DNA from: Dictyophora rubrovolvata
Taxonomy: Eukaryota; Basidiomycota; Agaricomycetes; Phallales; Phallaceae
Direction: 5' to 3'
Assembly (NCBI GenBank): GCA_029959195.1
Contig: CP114123.1
Span: forward strand, 1,550,001-1,614,000
DNA length: 64,000 bases
Shown here: positions 431 through 17,171 of the stretch, one piece after another
Layout of the letters: each line of letters begins with the position of its first letter
How positions within the stretch are numbered: the first letter of the stretch is position 1
The notes under the pieces: model-generated
Databases searched by the model: none
Seen by the model: only the letters and a program-made list of their open reading frames with translations
What the model was told of the DNA's origin: nothing
Program-made: the position numbers and the translations under genes

Positions 431-846
431 AATATTGTCAGGGTACACTAGCGCCATCCCCTTATTTTCCTACATTTATCTTCAGTTCTGGTCTATTTTA
501 TTTATTTCCATATTTCTCGTATTCTATCCCATCTCTTGCGTTTCCCTTTCCTTCCGTATTCCCATTTTCCCTTCAACAGGCACTGAGCACCCATTCTCAT
601 CAGAGCTATGGCCTAGGTCCCAGCTAAAAGTCTGGGACCGGTGCGTATCTGCACCCAGTCCACGAACTGAAGGCCGCATGTGGCCTTCGCCATTTTTCAT
701 AGTATATAGTTAGTAGCCCTAGAGGAGGGATCCCTAAGTTTGTTCTCTTAGGATCCCCTCCCTCTAGGTGAGTTAGTATTATTCCTGGAATATATTTCTC
801 TTAGGATCCCCTCTCTCTAGTCTGAGTGAGTAGCCCTGACAAATAT
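431..846 (+). mobile_element. Solo LTR, family L1, with 5-bp target duplication
   Basis: A 406-bp unit (436-841) begins TGTCAGGG and ends CCCTGACA and is flanked on both sides by AATAT (431-435 and 842-846). TG...CA ends plus a 5-bp duplication are the hallmark of an LTR, and no internal region is present, so this is a solo LTR. It sits exactly inside the transposase reading frame. A long stem-loop built on CCTAGAGG...CCTCTAGG lies near its 3' end (717-768). The preserved duplication suggests a fairly young insertion relative to the transposase it interrupts. Confidence 0.85.
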
Positions 847-2454: not shown

Positions 2455-4062
2455 TCTTTTCAAGTTCATGGACTCACTGAACCCTGTTTTTCTTGAATGT
2501 AGCCTTGAATTTGTCCAAGTTACAACTGTCAGCATCAGGGTGTCATATGAGCACAGTCAATAGTTCATCAATAGTCTGGAACAGATGCAGGACCATTATG
2601 TCAGAATTATCACTGGTTGGGTGCTGACTCATTTTGGGAGAACCTTTTCGCTCTGATAACCATTCTGACCCTGATGTCCTAACAGGATGAGAACCTGGTG
2701 GATAAGGAGCTGAAGGATAAGGAAGTGGAGGAGGCCACATGGGGTATGATTCAGGGATGCCAAGAAGATAGTGGTTAGGACCTAAACTACTCTTTGGGCA
2801 CTGGTGCAGTGTTCTTGACCGCTTCCTTCTGCAACTGAGTGTGAAAGTTGACAAATAACTCAGTTTTGGGGGGGTTTTTATAGGTAACACCATATTTCCC
2901 GGCAGCCTATAATAAATAAATGCCTGATAAGAAAAAAGATAGAATAGCTACTAATGCTTGAGCCCATATGCATAATTTACCCCAGGTAATTTCACAATGT
3001 TGGCCATTTTTGTCAATTTTGCAGTGGTTGTTATTACAGGATGCTGTTTCACAACCATGTAAGTAATTCTTGAGAGTCATTACCGCCTGTTTTTCCCACA
3101 AACCCATATCATTGACGCCTGCATCACTGTCTTCTTTGCCACTATCTGAACCATTCAGGTTGATATGGGGTGCACTGCCTTTCTTTTGGAATGTTCTGGT
3201 GCCAGGCTTCACTTTCATCCCTTTCTTCTTATTTAGAGTGTAACATAGGTTGTCACTGTACTATAATTTGATTTAGATAAAGTAGGATAAAGCAACAAAC
3301 ATGACTTACATCAGCTGGGAGATCAATATCAACTGATATGACAGTTATGTCCTTCTTTCCCTTTCCGATTATCAAAAGTTCCTCCAGAAGTCCTTCCCAG
3401 TCATTTTCTGATTGAAATTTCATTTTCTTCACCCCTTTGACTCCATTGAATTTGTATTTGAGGCTCGGTTTTTGCTGGATGTCCTGACAGCTAATAGCGT
3501 CATGTATTTTTCGAGTGTATCCTCGAAAGATTCCATGATGGAAACTCTGATCTGGATGTATGTATCTTTTTTGACACCATGCAGAACAATGAATTTCACC
3601 ACTATAATACTAATATTAGATATAGGAGTATGATTAGATAAACTGAGACTTACTTTCAATAATAGAGCCTTTTTTTATTATCGCTTTAGTTTGTTTGCTC
3701 TTTTTTTTTGGCTCAACAACTACAGAATCTTCAGAATCTGATGCCAATTTACAAGCTCCACCAATAGACAATGGCCAAGTCATTTCCTCCCATATTTCAT
3801 CTGGAATTCGGGATGGAAATTGAACACTTCTCACATCATCTCCAATATCTGAATCTATCTGCAACTCAGCGGCAATTATAGCATCCATGTTTGCTGAGTT
3901 TGGACATCTTCGACTTTGATTATGAGATGGAACTGCAATGGCCTCAACAGATGGGGCTTCTTCAGTGTTATCACCGTGGCTTGCATTATTGCTCTTATCT
4001 TTTCCACTTGCATCAGATATGATTGGTTCCTCTATAAATAAAGAAACTACCTTTTTCGACAT
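2455..4062 (-). pseudogene. Multicopy agaricomycete protein (Ubl-like / CysHis / SAM-like), copy 1, probably decayed
   Basis: Exons read leftward from an ATG at 4062. The N-terminal part is acidic (SDIGDDVRSVQFPSRIPDEI). A region follows that reads like a ubiquitin-fold: VKFIVLHGVKKDTYIQIRVS, then ENDWEGLLEELLIIGKGKK. Next is a basic linker and a Cys/His cluster (CETASCNNNHCKIDKNGQHC, about 2990-3055), then YGVTYKNPPKTELFVNFHT and a Pro-rich tail. The tail degenerates near 2550, where a SAM-like C-terminus would be expected. The same order recurs at 21793-23246. I recognise this arrangement from repeated agaricomycete hypothetical proteins; its function is unknown. Introns have GTAAGT-type donors (for example after DIDLPAD). 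Lying among transposons, it may be element-borne rather than a host gene. Confidence 0.55.
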
Positions 4063-4800: not shown

Positions 4801-4959
4801 TAAGGCTGTTCATGGGTATGGCTATACCTAGATACCTGTGACAGGTACCCATCACAAAACCCATGGGTTCAGGTACCCAAACCCATGGGTTTAATTTCAC
4901 TTAAAACCTGCAGGTGCAAACTTCAGTTTTTGGTCAATTTTTATAGAGAAACCCACAGT
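4801..4959 (-). mobile_element. MITE M3, outer third, cut by the paired-ORF element
   Basis: It starts TA-AGGCTGTTCATGGGTA and follows the reverse complement of the full MITE at 24861-25184, up to AGAGAAACCCACA, where the repeat element copy A begins. The missing continuation is found at 13793-13868. Rich in GGTACC motifs. Confidence 0.7.
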
Positions 4960-4964
4960 ATCGT

Positions 4965-6865
4965 ACACCAAAATCTATATTTGGTAAATATTGGGGTAAA
5001 TATCACAAAGAAACCCTAATCCCATGATATGTCTCTTGGAGCTTAAATTCACTTTGTGACTACCCAAATCACACCAAAAATATTTTTTCGTTGTCCCAAA
5101 AACAACTATACAAAAAGATATGTCTTCATTCCAAATTCATTCTGCTCATTCCCTGCCTTCTCATTGCATCCCTTCTCTCAATGACTCTCTCATTGTTTTT
5201 GTTTTGTCCTTCCTACTCCTGATGTCAATCTCTGTGATTTGGACACTCAGTACTACATCTACTTCACATCCTACATGCATCTCAACCTTGATCCCTCCAC
5301 CTTATTACTTTTATACCCAAACCCCATTATTATCAGTCAACATAAAGCTTCGGATCTGATCTTGTACTCAGATGCAGGAGATAAGGAGGTTTCTTTTGGA
5401 ACATGATTATGGTTAGAAGGATATGAAGAGTGGTTTGTTGTGGTGAATATGTACACAATTCACATAGGTCTCTTGGAAACAGTTACTGGGATATAGGCTA
5501 CAGTGGAACACAGACATGCATTCTGGCACATTGTTTTTGATGTCCCTTGTCCATGGATCCATCGTCAACATCAACACACACCAGAACCTGAATTTTTCCC
5601 CTTTTATTTTTCTTTCAGAGCTTTAATTATTTTCATTCCTCCTTATTCAACTCCTATGTCACTACCTTTTCCACTATCAACTCCAAGCTGACCCCATAGT
5701 CATATCCAGGCTGAAATTTGAGATTACATTGTTCCCAATAGGGAAGTCAAAATTGATGAAAACTCATTATTACCCATTTGAGAAGGATACATTTACACTA
5801 AACTCCCCAAAGGGCCATTCATATGACTTGGTTAGGCACATGCAAACACATTATGCTGGGAACTCACGTGGTGACTAGTTTTTCAGCATCCTATGCATTT
5901 TTGTAAACAACTTGTTCTCATCAATGCTCCCTTAGATGTCTCTGACTACTCTCCCCCTTATAGTAGTTTTGACATTGATCAATCTCTCCCTCTTCCTCCT
6001 TATCAAAAAACCAATCCCATTTCTTTCTCTCTAACACTTCTTGAACGATGTCCCCATCCTACCAAGTTTATACCAGATACACACCCAACTTGACGAAGAA
6101 GGATTAGATAAAGAAAGGGGAAAGAATGGAGGATAACATTGCAGCTGTGTAGCACTTATCGATGGCAATGTCCATTTTGGGATAATTAGTAAGGATGAAT
6201 GAATTCACCTCTTATTCTTGCTGTTCCTTCCTCATTTACTTCTTTTCTTTCTTTTGTACTTGTATTGATTCTAAATCCTTTCTATTGTGTTGCTCCTTTC
6301 TTTCTTTTTGTTTTGTCATCACTTTGAAATTCTTTTGTTCTCTCTTTGTAACAGTAAAGTCTCATTGACTCATATGCTCCCCTTTCATTACTCATCTTTT
6401 CTCTTCTTTTCATTACAAATCTGGCTCACAATTACTAATTGTATTGTCACACAAACCATATAAATACTGCATGTAAATACTTGTAACAGCAGCAATACCT
6501 ATGTTGGTTTTTGACTCAAGTTTAAGTTTGTTGTTTTTTGTTTAGTGTTTTTGGTTTTGTCTCTTGTCTACTTCTATGCTCATGTCTTCATCTTGGAAAA
6601 CTCTGAGACCATACATTTCAGAGTATAAACTTGCAATCTGAGTTATCACATTTGTCATTACTTTTGCCTTGCCAGCAAAATCTTGTTTGATAACAATAAC
6701 TTTCTTTTGGTTGTTGTTTGTTTGTTGTTCCTATCACCTCCACTTTCATTTCACACTAAGCAGCACCTGGACTTGCTCTGTGGAGATTGACTTGCTCACT
6801 ATATTCTTTTCTTGTGTATTTTTGTTAGGCACATTATTTTCCTTTTTGCGCATAGTAAAGCTTAC
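4965..6865 (+). mobile_element. Unrecognised paired-ORF repeat element, copy A (left arm of inverted repeat)
   Basis: This ~1.9 kb unit is matched in reverse by copy B at 13871-15770. Paired positions add up to a constant (about 20735) over nearly the whole length, with only a handful of mismatches seen. It starts at a degenerate TGTCACACACCAAAATC-type end and runs through short ORFs (5120-5359, 5503-5691, 5893-6093, 6669-6878) related to those of copy D. Near its 3' end is a TATAAATACTGCATG promoter-like block (about 6460) followed by repeats around CTCTGAGACC and GGAGATTGACTTGC. Class unresolved: the TG-start and the promoter-like 3' block would fit a long solo LTR. It looks broken, with several breaks. 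The B arm's close identity implies a recent duplication. Confidence 0.6.
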
Positions 6866-6867
6866 AA

Positions 6868-7090: not shown

Positions 7091-7263
7091 TTGTTATGTG
7101 GTGGAATGTGCATACAAAAGTCTGGCAATGTTAGTGCGAGAGATAAACAGTAGGCTTCAACTTGCTCTTGAGTTGTGCCCTCACGTTGTGTGGTTGTGAC
7201 ATCTGATGTGGGGAGTGTGTGGTCCAGATGATGCATTATGATGTCAGGAGACGTCATTGTGCG
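7091..7263. other. Spacer between L2 fragment and copy D
   Basis: No feature that I can support. A minus-strand open frame (7072-7257) has no recognisable content. Confidence 0.4.
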
Positions 7264-9560
7264 GTGTTGCGCACCAAAATCTTCCTAATACAGAAACATT
7301 CCGATTTTTGGTTCAAAGTGGAGTTTTAAAACTACCAAAAACTTAACCAACACACCACAGCCTCTAGAAAACAAAATTTTACAAAAAAAAAAGATGGCCG
7401 CATTTTTATTTCGCTATACATCATCAATCTCCTTGCCTGTTCCAGCATCCCCCTCCAAGTCATTACCCCCCTCTGATGATGAATCTATATCACCTTTCCA
7501 TTTTTTGCCTACCAGTCCAAGGACATACAATTTGGATCTGCATACAACTCTCTATATTTATAGTTCCCAGTATGCAAGTCTCAACATTGACGAAGAAATG
7601 TACCTCCCGAAGTTCCCTCCACCTCATATTATTCGTCAATGTAGAAGTTTGGATTTGGTTCACCCTGGTCTCATGTTTGGAGAAAAGGTCTATATCGAGG
7701 AACGACTAGATTGGTATATGATTATCAATGTTTATTCTACTCCTGAATCAGCCATACAAGACTCATATTGAATTTGGTTAGTGACACAAGATGGGTTCGA
7801 GTTTACATTTATGGTATTAGACATGCCAAGTTGTTGGGTTGTCATGAAAGGCATGAGAACACAAAAACTTAGCTCTTATAGACCAGCAAATCTCATTCCT
7901 GAAGAGCCACACTTTTCCCATTTTTCACCTCATTCGCCAGAACCGATTTCACTCCCCTCTTCCCCATCCAGACGATCCTTCTGGAAGATCCGTCACGTTT
8001 GTTCAAATCTTCTTGGACGAATTTAGGACAATAAACTTGTTTAGGATAAATGATTAGATTTATATTTCATCTCCTTCTTTCTTTCTGGACATTTCATTAG
8101 TGCTTGAAATTTTTGGTTAACTCATATCATCATGTCAGACAATAGCGATACTCCCACCTCCCCTATTCCCCTTTTTCAACTCCCTTTCTTCCCTTTTGAA
8201 TATCATTCTTCTCTCAGATTCAGGCCCAACCCTAATTTCCTCTCACGACTTCGCGTTTACAATACTCTCGTCTCCGAAATCAATGTCGATCCCTCCACAA
8301 TGCTTCCGATTACTCCACTGCCACTAATGGAGATTACTATTCCTTACAACAATCTGGAGATAGGATATCCACGAGCTTTGACCCTGTATGAATGAACTAA
8401 CATCAATGTCATGGATGAATCATACAAGTTTGTCGAGTTCCTTCCAACAAATCGTCAAGAAGAATCAATCTGGAGACTGGTTTTTCATCACCAATTTCGA
8501 AGTTATACTCAATTCCTATTCATAGATGCACCTCTATCTGCTATCCCGTCCCCTCCCGACTACACCATTGGAAATCAAATCCTCCCTTCCTATTCCGATC
8601 TCCAATCCAATCTTGTTCAAGATCTGATATTGTTAAGCGTCGCCATGGCTTTTATTGTTATGCCACAGCCACGAAGAAGAAGATCTCGTCAACAAGAACC
8701 AGATCAGTAAGAAGTTTGGGATGGTAAAGTTATAGTTTTGAGTAAGAGGCAGTGTGAGAAGTGCCAGATGGTGATTTTGGTAAAGCTATGCTGGGAGTCT
8801 GGTTTCATCATTTCCTTTTGATCTCTTTTTGTTTTTCCTTTTGTTCTCTTTTGTTTCTCTTTTCTTTCAACATATTTCTCCTATTCCCCTTAACTACATA
8901 TGCAATTCCCCTTTTCTGTAATTGTACTCCCTATCATCCTCTCACAATGCTCCTTTTCTTTTGTTTCTTTGTTTTCTTTTTGTTATCATGGTGAATTATG
9001 AGTGATCATTCTGCTTTCCTCTATGTTTCCAAATGGTATATATACTGCATGTAAATAATTGTAACAGCAGCAATCTACTGGAACGGTTGTCTCACAGTTT
9101 AGTCTAAGTCAAGTCAAGTTCAAGTCAAGTTTCGTCTCTAGTCTATTTCTACACTCACGTCTATTTCTTTGGATTACTCTGAGTGAGGCCTCGGAGTATA
9201 AACTCAACGATTTGTATTGTCGTTGAAGCCTTATTAACCTTAACAGATTTCTATCACTGTTTTATCGTCAGCATATTGTCATACCATTTTCATTGCTAAT
9301 CCACATTCATCGACCTCTTCACACACACAAGATCTTAGGATCGATTGTTTTTTTGTTGTTGTTGGTTTAATATCGACACTCACTCACTTGTTAAATCATA
9401 TGGTATACCCCCCACCACTTCCTCTTCATGAAATCAGCACCAGGACCCGCTCCACAGAGACTAGATGGCCTCAAACAAATATCATCGTAGTTTTTTCCGA
9501 TTGTATATATAGCTACAACATTTAGCTATTATCTTCGGATCATTACAGCGGGCAATGGGG
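7264..9560 (+). mobile_element. Unrecognised paired-ORF repeat element, copy D (most complete)
   Basis: Starts TGTTGCGCACCAAAATC, matching the 5' end of copies B and C. It carries the longest ORFs of the family: 7394-7771 (125 codons, with LYIYSSQYASLNIDEEMYLP), 7781-8026, 8132-8395 (with VYNTLVSEINVDPSTMLP) and 8411-8710 (with FLFIDAPLSAIPSPPDYT). The first and third share the pattern of aromatic residues, INVD/LNID and a downstream LP, suggesting an internal duplication. Downstream come a TATATACTGCATGTAAATAA promoter-like block (about 9040), repeated CAAGTCAAGT, and ACCAGGACCCGCTCCACAGAG. I do not recognise the proteins: no transposase, reverse transcriptase or capsid motif is visible. It looks broken, older than A/B and diverged from them. 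Right end uncertain. Confidence 0.5.
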
Positions 9561-9639: not shown

Positions 9640-10896
9640 AGGGATTTAAGATTTGAGATGAAATGTTGGCAGCATCGGAGATGCTGCCTGTGGTGAAGCG
9701 AGAGATTAAGAAGATGAGAAGGTGTTTCAAAGAAGCTTGGTGTAACAAGTAATAAGGCGAAATGTCTATTGATATCAGAACAGAAAAGTAGATACATTAA
9801 ATCAATCCTTTTATAGAAATGAAACATGATGACAAATATGGAAAAGGATGACACAAACAACATAGGTATTGCTGCTATTACAAGTATTTACATGCAGTAT
9901 TTATACCATTCAGAACAAAAGAAATATTTTTGGAGTTTGGGTGGCAACACAATTAGTAATTGTTTGCCAGATTTGTAAAGGAAAGAAAGAAATGAAGAGA
10001 CAGATGAATAATAGGGGAACAGATGAGTCAGTGAAGCTATACAATTACATAGAGGAAAACAAAAGAACTTAAAAGTGATGACAAAAGAAAGAAAGGAGCA
10101 ACATAATAGAAGAGAATCAGGATCAATACAAGTACAAAAGAAAGAGAAAAAAAAAGAGCAAAAGAGGAAGGAATGACAAGGATAGGAGGTAAAATCATAC
10201 ATTCTTACTAATTATCCCAAAATAGACATTGCCATTGATAAGCTCCACACAACCTCATGATTGTTTTTATCTGCTTCCTCTAACCTTGGAAATGATGTGC
10301 ATTCACCACTGTCATATGTATATGCATATTTCTGTCAGGGTACGCTAGTGTCGTCCCCTTCTTTTCCTCCATTTATCTTCGGTTCCTGTCTATTTTATTC
10401 ATTTCTATATTTCTCATATTTTATCCCATCTCTGGCTTTCCCCTTTCCTTCCATATTCCCATCCTTCCCTTCAACGGGTGCTGAGCACCCATTCCCATCA
10501 GCACCATGACCTAGGCCCCAGCTAAAAGTCCAGGACCAGCGCGTATCCACATCCAGTCCATGAACCGAGGGTTGCATACAACCTTCGCCATTTTTCATAG
10601 TATATAGTTAGTAGCCCTAGAGGAGAGATCCCTAAGTTTGTTCTCTTAGGATCCCCTCCCTCTAGTCTGAGTGAGTAGCCCTGACAGAAACTGGCAAACC
10701 CAAACCAATTCATATGAATGAGCCAGTATATTGATATGGATTATATCGTTCATTTTTGGATTCTCTGGGAATTCCAGTTTCTCGTAGGGTACCTGGTATT
10801 CTTGGATGGGGACCAGAGAAGGTGGCCATAATGTACTTTCATCTACCTCGATGTTCATGCCAGAAATGCAATAGATCTGTATTGTTGATATGAAAT
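9640..10896 (-). mobile_element. Paired-ORF element, copy E (3' half), split by a solo LTR
   Basis: The reverse strand carries the family's 3' block (TACATGCAGTATTTATA on the + strand at about 9890) and the TGGACATTGCCATCGATAAG-type block at about 10220. On the other side of the L1 solo LTR (10333-10686) is a segment at 10690-10858 with NIEVDESTLWPPSLVPIQEY, the counterpart of INVDPSTMLP in copy D. It is probably the continuation of copy C (11156-11755), the two being separated by an L2 LTR. Broken relic. Confidence 0.5.
10333..10686 (+). mobile_element. Solo LTR, family L1, inside copy E
   Basis: A 354-bp unit with TGTCAGGG...CCCTGACA ends, a promoter-like ATAGTATATAGTTAG block and the CCTAGAGG hairpin (about 10614-10668). 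It interrupts the reverse-strand paired-ORF element. Flanks are ATTTC and GAAAC, so no direct target duplication is preserved. Confidence 0.75.
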
Positions 10897-10897
10897 T

Positions 10898-11155
10898 TGT
10901 TAGGGCAACTCAGGGCACACACCTAGAGGAGGGAAAACCTAAGAGAAAAAGCTTAGGGATCCTCCTCTAGGGAAAATGACTACATATATATGAGTACAGG
11001 CACTCGGTTGATCCCCATGGGATCTGTGGTGATAATGAATGAAACGAGAGAACGAGTTGAAAATGAGAAATAGTCAGAAATGAAGAGAATGAGAAAATGA
11101 GAAAAAAATGGAATAAACATAAAAAGAATGTGAATATGGGAAAACAGAAAGAGTA
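10898..11155 (-). mobile_element. LTR family L2, reverse, one end missing
   Basis: Starts TGTTAGGGCAACTCAGGGCA on the + strand (the reverse of the L2 3' end), followed by the hairpin (10921-10972) and TGATCCCCATGGGATC. The other terminus (TGTCATGG) is missing where it meets copy C. Confidence 0.7.
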
Positions 11156-11755
11156 GATGAGATATTGAAAACAATGTGCCAGAACACATGTCCGTGTTCT
11201 GCAGTAGCCCATATCCTAGTAACCGTTTCCAAGAGACCTATGTGAATCGTGTACATATTCACCACAATGAACCACTCTTCATATCCTTCTAACCATAATT
11301 GTGTTCCAAAAGAAACCTTTTTATCCCCTGCATCTGACTCAGGTATGAAATCAGATCTGAAGCTTTATGTTGACCGATAATAATGGGGTGCAGGTATAAA
11401 GGTAATAAGGTGGAAGGATCAAGGTTGAGATCCACATAGGATGTGAAGTAGATGTAGTACTGAGTGTCCAAATCACAGAGATTGACATCAGGAGTAGGAG
11501 GGACAAAACAAAAACAATGAGAGTCATTGATAGAAGGTGTGTGGAGAGAGTGCAGGGAACAAGAAGAATGAATTTAGAATGAAGACATATCTTTTTGTAT
11601 AGTCGTTTTCGGGATAACAAAAAAAACATTTTTGGGTGTGATTTGGGTAGTCGCAAAGTGAATTTAAGCTCCAAGAGACATATCATGGGATTAGGGTTTC
11701 TTTGTGATATTTACCCCAATATTTACCAAATATAGATTTTGGTGTGTGACAGCGG
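11156..11755 (-). mobile_element. Paired-ORF element, copy C (5' part)
   Basis: On the reverse strand it begins TGTCACACACCAAAATC at 11755 and parallels the first part of copies A and B (ORF 11351-11686; TTGACATCAG and CACATTGTTTTC blocks). It is clearly more diverged from A/B than they are from each other. Its 5' end cuts a MITE M3 at GACCCGC. Broken. Confidence 0.55.
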
Positions 11756-13293: not shown

Positions 13294-13430
13294 GTAACAA
13301 CTAGCTATTCACCTAGAGGAGGGAAAATCTATGTTACACCTGCTTAATGTGTATGTAACCTCGCTTAACTTCCTGAAACCCTGCTTGTTCCTTATTGGGC
13401 AACTCCCCAGAGTAGCTGTCTCCCAAGCTT

Positions 13431-13790
13431 GGTTTTTGACTCAAGTTTAAGTTTGTTGTTTTTGTTTAGTGTTTTTGGTTTTGTCTCTTGTCTATCTCTA
13501 CACTCATGTCTTCATCTTGGAAAACTCTGAGACCATACATTTCAGAGTATAAACTTGCGATCTGAGTTATCACAATTATCATTTTCTTTGCCTCACAGGC
13601 AACTTTGATTCGTTGGCAGTAACTGTCTTTTGATTGTTGTTGTTTGTTTATTGTTTCCCCATCATCCCCACCCTTATTTCACACTAAGCAGCACCTGGAC
13701 TTGCTCTGTGGAGATTGACTTGCTCACCACATTCTTTTCTTGTGTATTTTTGCTAGGTGCATTATTTTCCTTTTTGCATATAGTGAAGCT
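13431..13790 (+). mobile_element. Paired-ORF element, 3' end fragment in forward orientation
   Basis: TTGGTTTTTGACTCAAGTTT to GTGAAGCTTAACAC matches the last ~360 bp of copy A (6505-6865). It faces copy B across a ~75-bp M3 piece, so the two form a snap-back palindrome. The flanks suggest it is the 3' end of a copy-C-type insertion. Confidence 0.6.
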
Positions 13791-13792
13791 TA

Positions 13793-13870: not shown

Positions 13871-15770
13871 TGTAAGCTTCACTATGTGCAAAAGGAAATA
13901 ATGTGCCTAACAAAAATACACAAGAAAAGAATATAGTGAGCAAGTCAATCTCCACAGAGCAAGTCCAGGTGCTGCTTAGTGTGAAATGAAAGTGGAGGTG
14001 ATAGGAACAACAAACAAACAACAACCAAAAGAAAGTTATTGTTATCAAACAAGATTTTGCTGGCAAGGCAAAAGTAATGACAAATGTGATAACTCAGATT
14101 GCAAGTTTATACTCTGAAATGTATGGTCTCAGAGTTTTCCAAGATGAAGACATGAGCATAGAAGTAGACAAGAGACAAAACCAAAAACACTAAACAAAAA
14201 ACAACAAACTTAAACTTGAGTCAAAAACCAACATAGGTATTGCTGCTGTTACAAGTATTTACATGCAGTATTTATATGGTTTGTGTGACAATACAATTAG
14301 TAATTGTGAGCCAGATTTGTAATGAAAAGAAGAGAAAAGATGAGTAATGAAAGGGGAGCATATGAGTCAATGAGACTTTACTGTTACAAAGAGAGAACAA
14401 AAGAATTTCAAAGTGATGACAAAACAAAAAGAAAGAAAGGAGCAACACAATAGAAAGGATTTAGAATCAATACAAGTACAAAAGAAAGAAAAGAAGTAAA
14501 TGAGGAAGGAACAGCAAGAATAAGAGGTGAATTCATTCATCCTTACTAATTATCCCAAAATGGACATTGCCATCGATAAGTGCTACACAGCTGCAATGTT
14601 ATCCTCCATTCTTTCCCCTTTCTTTATCTAATCCTTCTTCGTCAAGTTGGGTGTGTATCTGGTATAAACTTGGTAGGATGGGGACATCGTTCAAGAAGTG
14701 TTAGAGAGAAAGAAATGGGATTGGTTTTTTGATAAGGAGGAAGAGGGAGAGATTGATCAATGTCAAAACTACTATAAGGGGGAGAGTAGTCAGAGACATC
14801 TAAGGGAGCATTGATGAGAACAAGTTGTTTACAAAAATGCATAGGATGCTGAAAAACTAGTCACCACGTGAGTTCCCAGCATAATGTGTTTGCATGTGCC
14901 TAACCAAGTCATATGAATGGCCCTTTGGGGAGTTTAGTGTAAATGTATCCTTCTCAAATGGGTAATAATGAGTTTTCATCAATTTTGACTTCCCTATTGG
15001 GAACAATGTAATCTCAAATTTCAGCCTGGATATGACTATGGGGTCAGCTTGGAGTTGATAGTGGAAAAGGTAGTGACATAGGAGTTGAATAAGGAGGAAT
15101 GAAAATAATTAAAGCTCTGAAAGAAAAATAAAAGGGGAAAAATTCAGGTTCTGGTGTGTGTTGATGTTGACGATGGATCCATGGACAAGGGACATCAAAA
15201 ACAATGTGCCAGAATGCATGTCTGTGTTCCACTGTAGCCTATATCCCAGTAACTGTTTCCAAGAGACCTATGTGAATTGTGTACATATTCACCACAACAA
15301 ACCACTCTTCATATCCTTCTAACCATAATCATGTTCCAAAAGAAACCTCCTTATCTCCTGCATCTGAGTACAAGATCAGATCCGAAGCTTTATGTTGACT
15401 GATAATAATGGGGTTTGGGTATAAAAGTAATAAGGTGGAGGGATCAAGGTTGAGATGCATGTAGGATGTGAAGTAGATGTAGTACTGAGTGTCCAAATCA
15501 CAGAGATTGACATCAGGAGTAGGAAGGACAAAACAAAAACAATGAGAGAGTCATTGAGAGAAGGGGTGCAATGAGAAGGCAGGGAATGAGCAGAATGAAT
15601 TTGGAATGAAGACATATCTTTTTGTATAGTTGTTTTTGGGACAACGAAAAAATATTTTTGGTGTGATTTGGGTAGTCACAAAGTGAATTTAAGCCCCAAG
15701 AGACATATCATGGGATTAGGGTTTCTTTGTGATATTTACCCCAATATTTACTGAATATAGATTTTGGTGT
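13871..15770 (-). mobile_element. Paired-ORF element, copy B (right arm of inverted repeat)
   Basis: The reverse complement of copy A, carrying the same small ORFs (13674-14066, 14642-14842, 15044-15232, 15376-15615, all minus). Only two small homopolymer length differences were seen, near the inner end. On the minus strand it starts TGTCACACACCAAAATC right beside the Plavaka relic. Class unresolved; broken; recent by its identity to A. Confidence 0.6.
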
Positions 15771-15774
15771 GTGA

Positions 15775-16345
15775 CAATGTGGGTATGAGCATGGAGGTTG
15801 TATAAAACTAGCTCTGTGCAAATATGATAGAGGCAGTTCCGAAGGTAACCAGGATAGCATTGATATTGACCAGCACTTGTAAATACTGCATTGGCGAATT
15901 TGGCCTCAGGAAAAGTATGTGAGGCAGAGAAAAGCATGTTGATTTGGGGCAGAACAGACATGCTGACGGATGTGTGCATTGCTGATAATGAAAGGCTTTA
16001 TCTTCTTATCTCCCAAGAAGTTTGTCAGATGAGTGGAGTCAGATGCTAGGATATAGGGAATTCACATTGCCACTCGAATGATTCCATGCTTCACCTGACA
16101 CAACTTCACAGTAGACTCAGTCTGTGTGAGACTCATCCAAATATTCCTCATATGGAACATAGTCCTTCTCCTGAGAGTACTCCAGATTAGCCTCTAACCA
16201 GGCAAGGCACTTAACAGGGTTGCAATACAGGAGGAGTTGGGGGTCATCTGGAGCCTCAGGCAACGTTACCCACTGAAAATGCCATCATGGTGCTCCAGGC
16301 AAGCTTTCAATGCACTTTAGAAGATCTTTCATGTTGTGAAATGAA
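15775..16345 (-). pseudogene. Plavaka-type (CACTA-like) transposase fragment
   Basis: The reverse strand reads LPEAPDDPQLLLYCNPVKCL, then LEANLEYSQEKDYVPYEEY. After a stop and a frame change come YCEVVSGEAW, LASDSTHLTNFLGDKK (counterpart of the conserved ILASDkThLT..GDK block with its catalytic Asp) and IKPFIISNAHIRQHV. Agaricomycete Plavaka transposases have these blocks in this order. N- and C-terminal parts are gone: copy B abuts one end and an L1 LTR the other. A short in-frame stretch (15716-15979) follows with LYHICTELVLYN. Dead fragment. Confidence 0.7.
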
Positions 16346-16350
16346 GGAGC

Positions 16351-16704
16351 TGTCAGGGTATGCTAGCACTGTCCCCTTATTTTCTCTACATTTATCATCA
16401 GCTCTTGTTCATTTTATTTATCTCCATATTTCTCATATTTTATCCTATCTCTTGCTCTCCCCATTCCCTCCATATTCCCGCTTCTCCTATCAACAGGTGC
16501 TGAGCACCTGTTCCCATCAGCACCATGGCCTAGGCCCCAGCTAAAAGTCTGGGACTGGCACATATCTGCACCCAGTCTATGAACCGAGGGTCACATGCGA
16601 CCTTTGCCATTTTTCATAGTATATAGTTAGTAGCCCTAGAGGAAGGATCCCTAAGTTTGTTCTCTTAGGATCCCCTCCCTCTAGGTGAGTGAGTAGCCCT
16701 GACA
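16351..16704 (+). mobile_element. Solo LTR, family L1
   Basis: 354 bp with TGTCAGGG...CCCTGACA ends, the same length as the copy at 10333-10686. Contains the ATAGTATATAGTTAG block and the CCTAGAGG hairpin at about 16636-16685. Flanks GGAGC and GCACT show no clear duplication. Confidence 0.75.
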
Positions 16705-17171
16705 GCACTGATAAAAGCAGTTTAATGTTACATATGGTGGTTCGGGGCTATCCTGGATATCTCCAAGGAAGTCTGGACTGCTGGGGACAGACGGAACAGA
16801 AGTATGGAAGTATGGGATGAGGGACTTGGCTTCAGCTTATAAGCTGTGCCCACTTGCCCAGCTTTATATATCCCTCAATTTCGGAGTGTCAGGGACTTAG
16901 AGTAGAGTGTGAGATTAAACTGATATTCAGATTGGGGATCCACAGCTGGGAGCTGGGGGTTTAAATACAAGAGGGAACAGAACTACAGAAATGGGGATAA
17001 GGACAAATAAGGAAAGGTAGTATATGGTTGAACACAGCTTGGGATGATAATTATACAATCTTTGTCCCTTATTACTAAGAGTCTGGGGCTGATATCCCCA
17101 TAAGGAAGGTGACAGACATGAACCCTGGACAGAGTACTGACAAGTACAGAGTGGGATTGATACAGAGATAC
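16705..17171. other. Repeat-derived spacer, nothing recognised
   Basis: Begins with CACTGATAAAAGCAGTTTAA, the reverse of a motif in the LTR-like repeat at about 1150-1175. Otherwise I see no gene. Confidence 0.4.

What the first reader, a model, noticed from the sequence alone, without database searches (positions are those of the whole stretch)
7264..9560. A repeat family with small ORFs that match no known transposon protein
Copies at 4965, 7264, 9640-10896, 11156 and 13871 share short ORFs (INVDPSTMLP-type and FLFIDAPL-type segments) plus a TATA-like block near the 3' end, yet no transposase, reverse transcriptase or capsid signature is visible. Copies related at protein level over diverged DNA suggest the ORFs were once under selection. 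The TG start and promoter-like 3' block leave open that each is a very long solo LTR.
Basis: partly seen in the sequence, partly recalled or inferred. Interest (0 to 1): 0.7.

Follow-up and report, generated by a model that had tools for sequence, protein, structure and literature searches.

The report
Long solo LTRs carrying protein genes
The repeats are very long end-repeats of a retrotransposon in a compact eukaryotic, probably fungal, genome; unusually, each carries two small genes of unknown function that show the marks of natural selection, while no complete copy of the parent element could be shown.

Summary
The window unit is 7265-9547, TGT...ACA, with 4-bp duplication GCGG. End patterns find 111 A/D-type and 46 C-type 5' ends in the 28.2-Mb assembly. 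Fixed differences between A subfamilies are 46 synonymous to 26 nonsynonymous; changes private to one copy are 21 to 37, with 5 stops: the ORFs were selected as proteins. No known protein family matches. The unit behaves as an LTR: TG..CA ends, 4-bp duplications centred on CG, and two exchanges between families at one point about 23 nt after the TATA box, as strand transfer at the start of R would give. No full element was shown; one same-strand pair on C10 (93% over 384 bp) is unresolved, and a gag-pol family without detectable LTRs is a possible partner. Best reading: solo LTRs whose U3 encodes two accessory proteins, as in some retroviruses but without detected kinship to them.

The parts
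7265..9547 (+). A-family unit (solo LTR), TGTTGCGCACC...GATCATTACA
   Evidence: ends shared with genome copies; exact ends in window
7261..7264 (.). 4-bp target-site duplication, left copy GCGG
9548..9551 (.). 4-bp target-site duplication, right copy GCGG
7394..8023 (+). ORF1 of the A unit, 82% identical to the intact 210-aa ORF of L025; broken in the window by one TGA (7769-7771)
8132..8698 (+). ORF2 of the A unit, 89% identical to the intact 188-aa ORF of L025; broken in the window by one TGA (8393-8395)
9035..9047 (+). TATA-like block GGTATATATACTG
9060..9547 (+). inferred R-U5 part, from the exchange point TGTAACAGCAGCAAT to the 3' end; A (L025) and D (L054) share this part at 95-98% although their upstream parts are 47-53% alike
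4959..6866 (+). C-family unit, degenerate; ACAG on both sides; ORF1 remnant 5161-5703, ORF2 remnant 5869-6021, exchange point 6482
13871..15776 (-). C-family unit, 99.3% identical to 4959-6866 in inverted orientation; its 4-bp flanks (ACAT, GTGG) do not match
9855..11751 (-). C-family unit interrupted by other repeats (10897-11150; LTR of another element 10331-10687); ORF1 remnant 11588-11128, ORF2 remnant 10897-10688, exchange point 9882; 3' end not located
13429..13792 (+). 3' fragment of a C-family unit

Best explanation
Each copy is a solo LTR, U3-R-U5, about 2.2-2.35 kb long, of LTR-retrotransposon families A, C and D. U3 (about 1.72-1.97 kb) holds two tandem ORFs of about 175-220 codons; R starts about 23 nt after the TATA box and R-U5 is about 380-490 bp. 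Shown: the insertion unit and its ends, the 4-bp duplication with CG core, the signal of purifying selection on the ORFs, and two exchanges of the upstream and downstream parts at the same point. Inferred: the families moved through RNA in two-LTR elements that carried or borrowed gag-pol; the inner parts were lost by LTR-LTR recombination; the ORFs were translated from RNA running through the 3' LTR (as for genes in the U3 of some retroviruses) and the two proteins are accessory factors that help the element, most likely in regulation or against host defence. ORF1 and ORF2 are probably paralogues with one small beta-rich fold.
For: Ends and duplications: 35 of 40 A copies have both ends readable; 15 of 35 have identical 4-bp flanks and 33 of 35 match allowing transitions only (shuffled pairing 1.5 and 9.4); 32 of 35 have CG in the middle on at least one side. 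14 of 35 (one a weak match) have an empty-site counterpart among the sequences held. Selection: fixed differences between 29 young and 5 old A copies, ORF1 32 syn/19 non, ORF2 14/7, third codon positions 48 of 72 (p 8e-9); private changes 21/37 with 5 stops, third positions 23 of 58 (p 0.19); Fisher p 0.0026 (crude dN/dS 0.18 and 0.16). The ORF pair is kept in families only 30-51% identical in protein. LTR anatomy: A and D 47-53% alike in the bins upstream of the exchange point, 98, 95 and 95% after it; F (L069) 70-83% like C upstream and 89% then 85% like A in the first 300 bp after it. U3 subfamilies over a common remainder, with template switching proposed, are reported for crapaud of Podospora (PMC10787394, passages read). 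Families known only from LTRs have precedent: 8 of 9 in S. pombe (PMC7175516, passages read).
Against: No full element was shown. From listed end positions 74 complete units and 9 same-strand neighbours of one end type within 20 kb were found. Among 148 of the 150 ORF2 matches, ten same-strand pairs of A-type matches lie 1.5-20 kb apart and none is alike in identity to the query (for example 98 and 86%); of four pairs of diverged matches one, on C10 (1376614 and 1387799, 93.2% alike over 384 bp, with a shared TGA that the related copy L069 lacks), could be an old LTR pair or two copies of one subfamily; no RT, RNase H or integrase match lies between them. Even two copies 99.96% identical (L022, L025) are solo. 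Other LTR elements here keep their inside (L059 with LTRs 88% alike, L056 with LTRs 99.6% alike). PBS and polypurine tract cannot be seen in a solo LTR. F is only 47% like A in the third downstream bin, where about 600 bp are inserted, and 87.6% after that. The exchange could be gene conversion. By transversions alone fixed differences are 9 syn/15 non (private 0/10), a weaker signal. ORF1-ORF2 kinship is weak by sequence (29.3 bits, 1 of 500 shuffles reaches it; C ORF1-ORF2 17.3 bits, 138 of 500); profile E 1e-4 and 8e-4 but probabilities only 57 and 25.
Confidence: 0.7

Rival explanations
1. The 2.2-2.35-kb unit is itself the transposon: a two-gene element with TGT...ACA ends that is inserted singly, as DNA or as an LTR-only retroelement, by an integrase or transposase supplied in trans (for example a Ginger-like or gypsy-type integrase).
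For: The analysed copies are single, the youngest included. Strict NCGN target. Two genes kept intact in 14 of 40 copies. A gag-pol family with long open frames, protease, RT, RNase H, integrase and chromodomain (L055, C3:34351; RT relatives with frames of 905-2350 codons at C4:2019439, C8:735483, C3:668372, C5:483658) shows no flanking direct repeat over 24 bp in 4.3 kb on the left and 5.3 kb on the right of the one copy examined, so a supplier without LTRs of its own is conceivable.
Against: No terminal inverted repeat of 14 bp or more, only TGT/ACA. The TATA block lies after the ORFs and points out of the unit. Exchange of everything after TATA+23 nt between families fits reverse transcription of an LTR better than DNA transposition. 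The L055 stretch has no similarity to A, C or D units.
Confidence: 0.15
2. The ORFs are incidental: old LTRs with open frames by composition only, no protein made.
For: No known protein family matches. By my criteria 26 of 40 copies lack at least one intact ORF. Weak transversion signal.
Against: Synonymous excess in fixed differences but not in private ones; cross-family similarity above all of 500 shuffles; frames kept at 30-35% identity.
Confidence: 0.06
3. The units are LTRs, but the ORFs are a captured host gene pair that confers something on the host or on the locus, for instance selfish transmission, rather than helping transposition.
For: wtf drivers of S. pombe sit beside Tf LTRs (PMC7175516, passages read). 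The genes survive in units that have lost everything else.
Against: No host homologue was noticed: the listed matches look like copies of the units, though they were not checked one by one. No functional data.
Confidence: 0.09

Closest known systems
crapaud LTR retrotransposon of Podospora (PMC10787394, passages read)
   Same: Several U3 versions over a common rest of the LTR; many solo copies; some subfamilies without full copies; template switching suggested.
   Different: Its divergent U3 is under 200 bp and no U3 gene is mentioned in the passages read; full copies with gag and pol ORFs exist.
sag gene in the U3 of mouse mammary tumour virus (recalled; only a search listing seen)
   Same: A protein gene inside the U3 part of an LTR.
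   Different: One gene; no sequence match to any Pfam family here; a retrovirus of animals with a known full genome.
Retrosat2 of rice (PMC3485330, passages read)
   Same: LTRs over 3.2 kb and an extra lineage-specific ORF of unknown role.
   Different: Its ORF0 lies upstream of the gag-pol ORF in the passages read, not in the LTR.
LTR-only families of S. pombe (PMC7175516, passages read)
   Same: Families known only as LTRs or LTR fragments.
   Different: No coding LTRs mentioned in the passages read.

Membership tests
LTR of an LTR retrotransposon | TG...CA ends | tested here: met
   TGT...TTACA in A, C and D copies; single decayed starts such as TAT in L052 and the window C copy
LTR of an LTR retrotransposon | target-site duplication of constant length | tested here: met
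   4 bp, 33 of 35 allowing transitions; empty sites for 14 of 35, one weak
LTR of an LTR retrotransposon | U3-R-U5 order with RNA start inside | tested here: inconclusive
   TATA box and two exchanges about 23 nt after it; no RNA data
LTR of an LTR retrotransposon | two like LTRs around gag-pol in a full copy | tested here: not met
   none shown in this assembly; the C10 pair is unresolved and has no RT, RNase H or integrase match between its members; full copies of other families present
LTR of an LTR retrotransposon | primer-binding site and polypurine tract | not testable with these tools
   lost with the internal region
U3-encoded retroviral gene such as MMTV sag | selected ORF inside U3 | tested here: met
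   (that the part is U3 is inferred)
U3-encoded retroviral gene such as MMTV sag | sequence homology to the known protein | tested here: not met
   no Pfam family above chance in 4 proteins and in two 10-member alignments
Ginger-type DNA transposon (definition recalled) | long terminal inverted repeats | tested here: not met
   only TGT/ACA; no terminal inverted repeat of 14 bp or more in two copies
Ginger-type DNA transposon (definition recalled) | integrase-like transposase in the element | tested here: not met
   not in the unit; a source in trans is not excluded

The most novel reading that the evidence does not exclude
The coding LTR is the true selfish unit: an LTR that spreads or persists without its own gag-pol because its two paralogous U3 proteins act in trans, for instance by capturing the particles or integrase of another element (the gag-pol family of L055, for which no LTRs could be seen, would be a candidate supplier), or as a linked pair that protects its own locus, so that families A, C and D kept evolving under purifying selection without a full parent.
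Probability: 0.12. Interest if true: 0.85.

Novelty: new variant of a known kind. Interest (0 to 1): 0.52.

Why it matters
Genes inside LTRs are known from a few animal retroviruses (recalled). A selected pair of probably paralogous proteins inside retrotransposon LTRs, kept in three diverged families and surviving as 'solo LTRs', would mean that sequence usually masked as non-coding LTR can encode proteins, and gives a tractable case for what such accessory proteins do. Four searches for LTR-encoded ORFs in retrotransposons (8, 6, 7 and 15 of 146 papers listed, seen as titles and starts of abstracts) showed no such case; the library misses most subscription papers.

Tried and rejected
Internal region in neighbouring RT elements: rejected where it could be followed. 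G1 (L059) has its own 408-bp LTRs; G1 and G2 (L073, L048+L074) have units inserted in them; G3 (L072), of which no second full copy was found by its gag region, looked promising because an ATG lies about 45 bp after a D end, but that D copy has CCGT on both sides and is an insertion. Two D ends 142 bp apart on C1 (L075) belong to copies only 75% alike over 188 bp, the second cut short by G1. The gag-pol family of L055 is kept as a lead, not as the parent: it shares nothing with the units, and its other copies could not be fetched.

Limits of counts: one search scored 40 of 209 candidates; searches scored 150 of 184 and 150 of 210; one search lists only the first of 162 places and 100 of 111. 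In one search I added two 5' ends by hand, one of them (C4:1014839) filed as A/D though it is C, and 11 A/D 5' ends were not listed, so 74 units is a lower bound. One search used 148 of the 150 ORF2 rows (two short fragments left out). Searches used 34 of 40 copies for the counts of changes (L011, L036a, L043-L046 left out). One search dropped 5 of 40 copies lacking a readable end. Only one copy of the L055 family was read.

Full report
What is there. The window lies at C7:1550001-1614000 of a 28.2-Mb, 11-contig assembly with eukaryotic host genes. Aligning 40 copies (38 regions fetched, one holding two copies, plus the window copy) gives the ends TGT[CT]GCGCACC...TTACA, with scattered substitutions; 35 have both ends readable. 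The flanking 4 bp are identical in 15 of 35 and match with transitions only in 33 of 35 (shuffled pairing 1.5 and 9.4); the fifth base matches in 5 of 35. The middle of the 4 bp is CG on at least one side in 32 of 35; the three exceptions read TG/CA twice and CA/CA once, which decay of CG would give (inference). For 14 of 35, one of them weak, the joined flanks match an unoccupied relative among the sequences held.

Families. Family C (2.35 kb, L049-L052) includes the window copies at 4959, 11751(-) and 15776(-); family D (2.2 kb, L053, L054) shares only its 3' part closely with A. End patterns find 111 A/D-type and 46 C-type 5' ends, 96 A/D-type and 34 C-type 3' ends, and no match of the reversed control patterns.

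The ORFs. Young A copies carry ORF1 (210 aa) and ORF2 (188 aa) on the same strand. Both are intact in 14 of 40 copies (ORF1 22, ORF2 20). The window copy has one TGA in each. C and D carry the same pair at 30-51% identity. Between 29 young and 5 older A copies fixed differences are 46 synonymous and 26 nonsynonymous, 48 of 72 at third positions; changes private to single young copies are 21 and 37, 5 of them stops, 23 of 58 at third positions; Fisher p 0.0026. With transversions only the contrast is weak (9/15 and 0/10). I read this as purifying selection in the lineage that spread, and decay after insertion. A-C similarity beats all of 500 shuffles for both ORFs. ORF1 and ORF2 are probably paralogues: profile comparison E 1e-4 and 8e-4, though with probabilities of only 57 and 25, and the same order of strands in two models; single-sequence comparison is barely better than chance for A and no better for C. 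No known family or fold was matched with confidence.

Why an LTR. A TATA box at A position 1750 is followed after about 23 nt by TGTAACAGCAGCAAT. Upstream of this point A and D are 47-53% alike in the compared bins, downstream 98, 95 and 95%. F (L069) is 70-83% like C upstream and 89% then 85% like A in the first 300 bp downstream, where C and A are 66% and 46% alike; its next bin is broken by an insertion of about 600 bp, after which it is again 87.6% like A. D keeps a diverged upstream part over an almost unchanged non-coding rest, so a rate difference is a poor explanation. Two families changed partner within the same 60 bp: what minus-strand strong-stop transfer between two packaged RNAs would give (established mechanism; proposed for crapaud in PMC10787394, passages read). 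Gene conversion is the alternative.

What is missing. Sorting the listed ends gave 74 complete units and 9 same-strand neighbours of one end type within 20 kb. Of 148 ORF2 matches, ten same-strand A-type pairs lie 1.5-20 kb apart, none with like identity to the query; of four pairs of diverged matches three join different families, by their listed 5' ends or ORF1 identities, and one, on C10, is 93.2% alike over 384 bp and shares a TGA. RT neighbours that I followed proved to be other elements hit by the unit. Yet other LTR elements here keep their inside, one with LTRs only 88% alike. So either LTRs of over 2 kb recombine out very fast (S. pombe's LTR-only families are a precedent: PMC7175516, passages read), or the unit moves singly. 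I put 0.7 on the first and 0.15 on the second.

A possible partner. One gag-pol family (L055, with RT relatives in long open frames at four more places) has protease, RT, RNase H, integrase, Tf2-1-like SH3 and chromodomain matches, but no flanking direct repeat over 24 bp in the one copy examined. It shares nothing with the units.

How it would work. The promoter in the LTR starts RNA near the exchange point; in a complete element RNA runs through the inner part into the 3' LTR, whose U3 contains ORF1 and ORF2; these are made from spliced or read-through RNA and help the element. Only the selection signal, the position of the ORFs upstream of the TATA box and the exchanges are shown; transcription, splicing and function are inferred. 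The integrase leaves 4 bp and favours NCGN.

Verdict. Not a new transposon class on this evidence, but an unusual coding LTR: a new variant of a known kind.

Noticed in passing
window 436-778, 10331-10687, 16350-16705 and similar: Copies of the roughly 408-bp LTR of another element (G1, L059), a frequent target of the A units.
   Followed up: partly
L055 (C3:30500-39500), with RT relatives at C4:2019439, C8:735483, C3:668372, C5:483658: Chromodomain gag-pol family with long open frames (905-2455 codons) and no LTRs seen around the one copy examined.
   Followed up: partly
C10:1376614 and 1387799 (L081, L082): Two same-strand C-like ORF2 copies 11.2 kb apart, 93.2% alike over 384 bp and sharing a TGA; possible old LTR pair.
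   Followed up: partly
L022 and L025 (C7:1931858-1934113 - and 1938431-1940689 +): Two units 99.96% identical, in opposite orientation 4.3 kb apart, with different target duplications. Other opposite-strand pairs with equal scores exist (C1:876399/898842, C10:1384737/1397870), and the window pair 4959/15776.
   Followed up: no
L058, about 3630-3920 (C3 near 43.1 kb): Array of TTTAGGG repeats running into a stretch of N inside the contig, about 5 kb from the L055 gag-pol frames.
   Followed up: no
L044, L036a, L043, L046: A subgroup of A with a different segment after position 1999 of the unit.
   Followed up: no
ORF2 C-termini in alignment A3 (L025, L067, L064, L066): PPxY-like motifs (PPDY, PPSY, PPPY) and basic ends by eye; in A a hydrophobic helix precedes the basic end.
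   Followed up: no
window 27993-63363: Host genes with WD40, adaptin N-terminal, VHS, KN homeobox and leucine-rich repeat matches.
   Followed up: partly
L080: A stretch resembling, by eye, the end of a Ty1/copia polyprotein interrupts the D copy beside G3.
   Followed up: no
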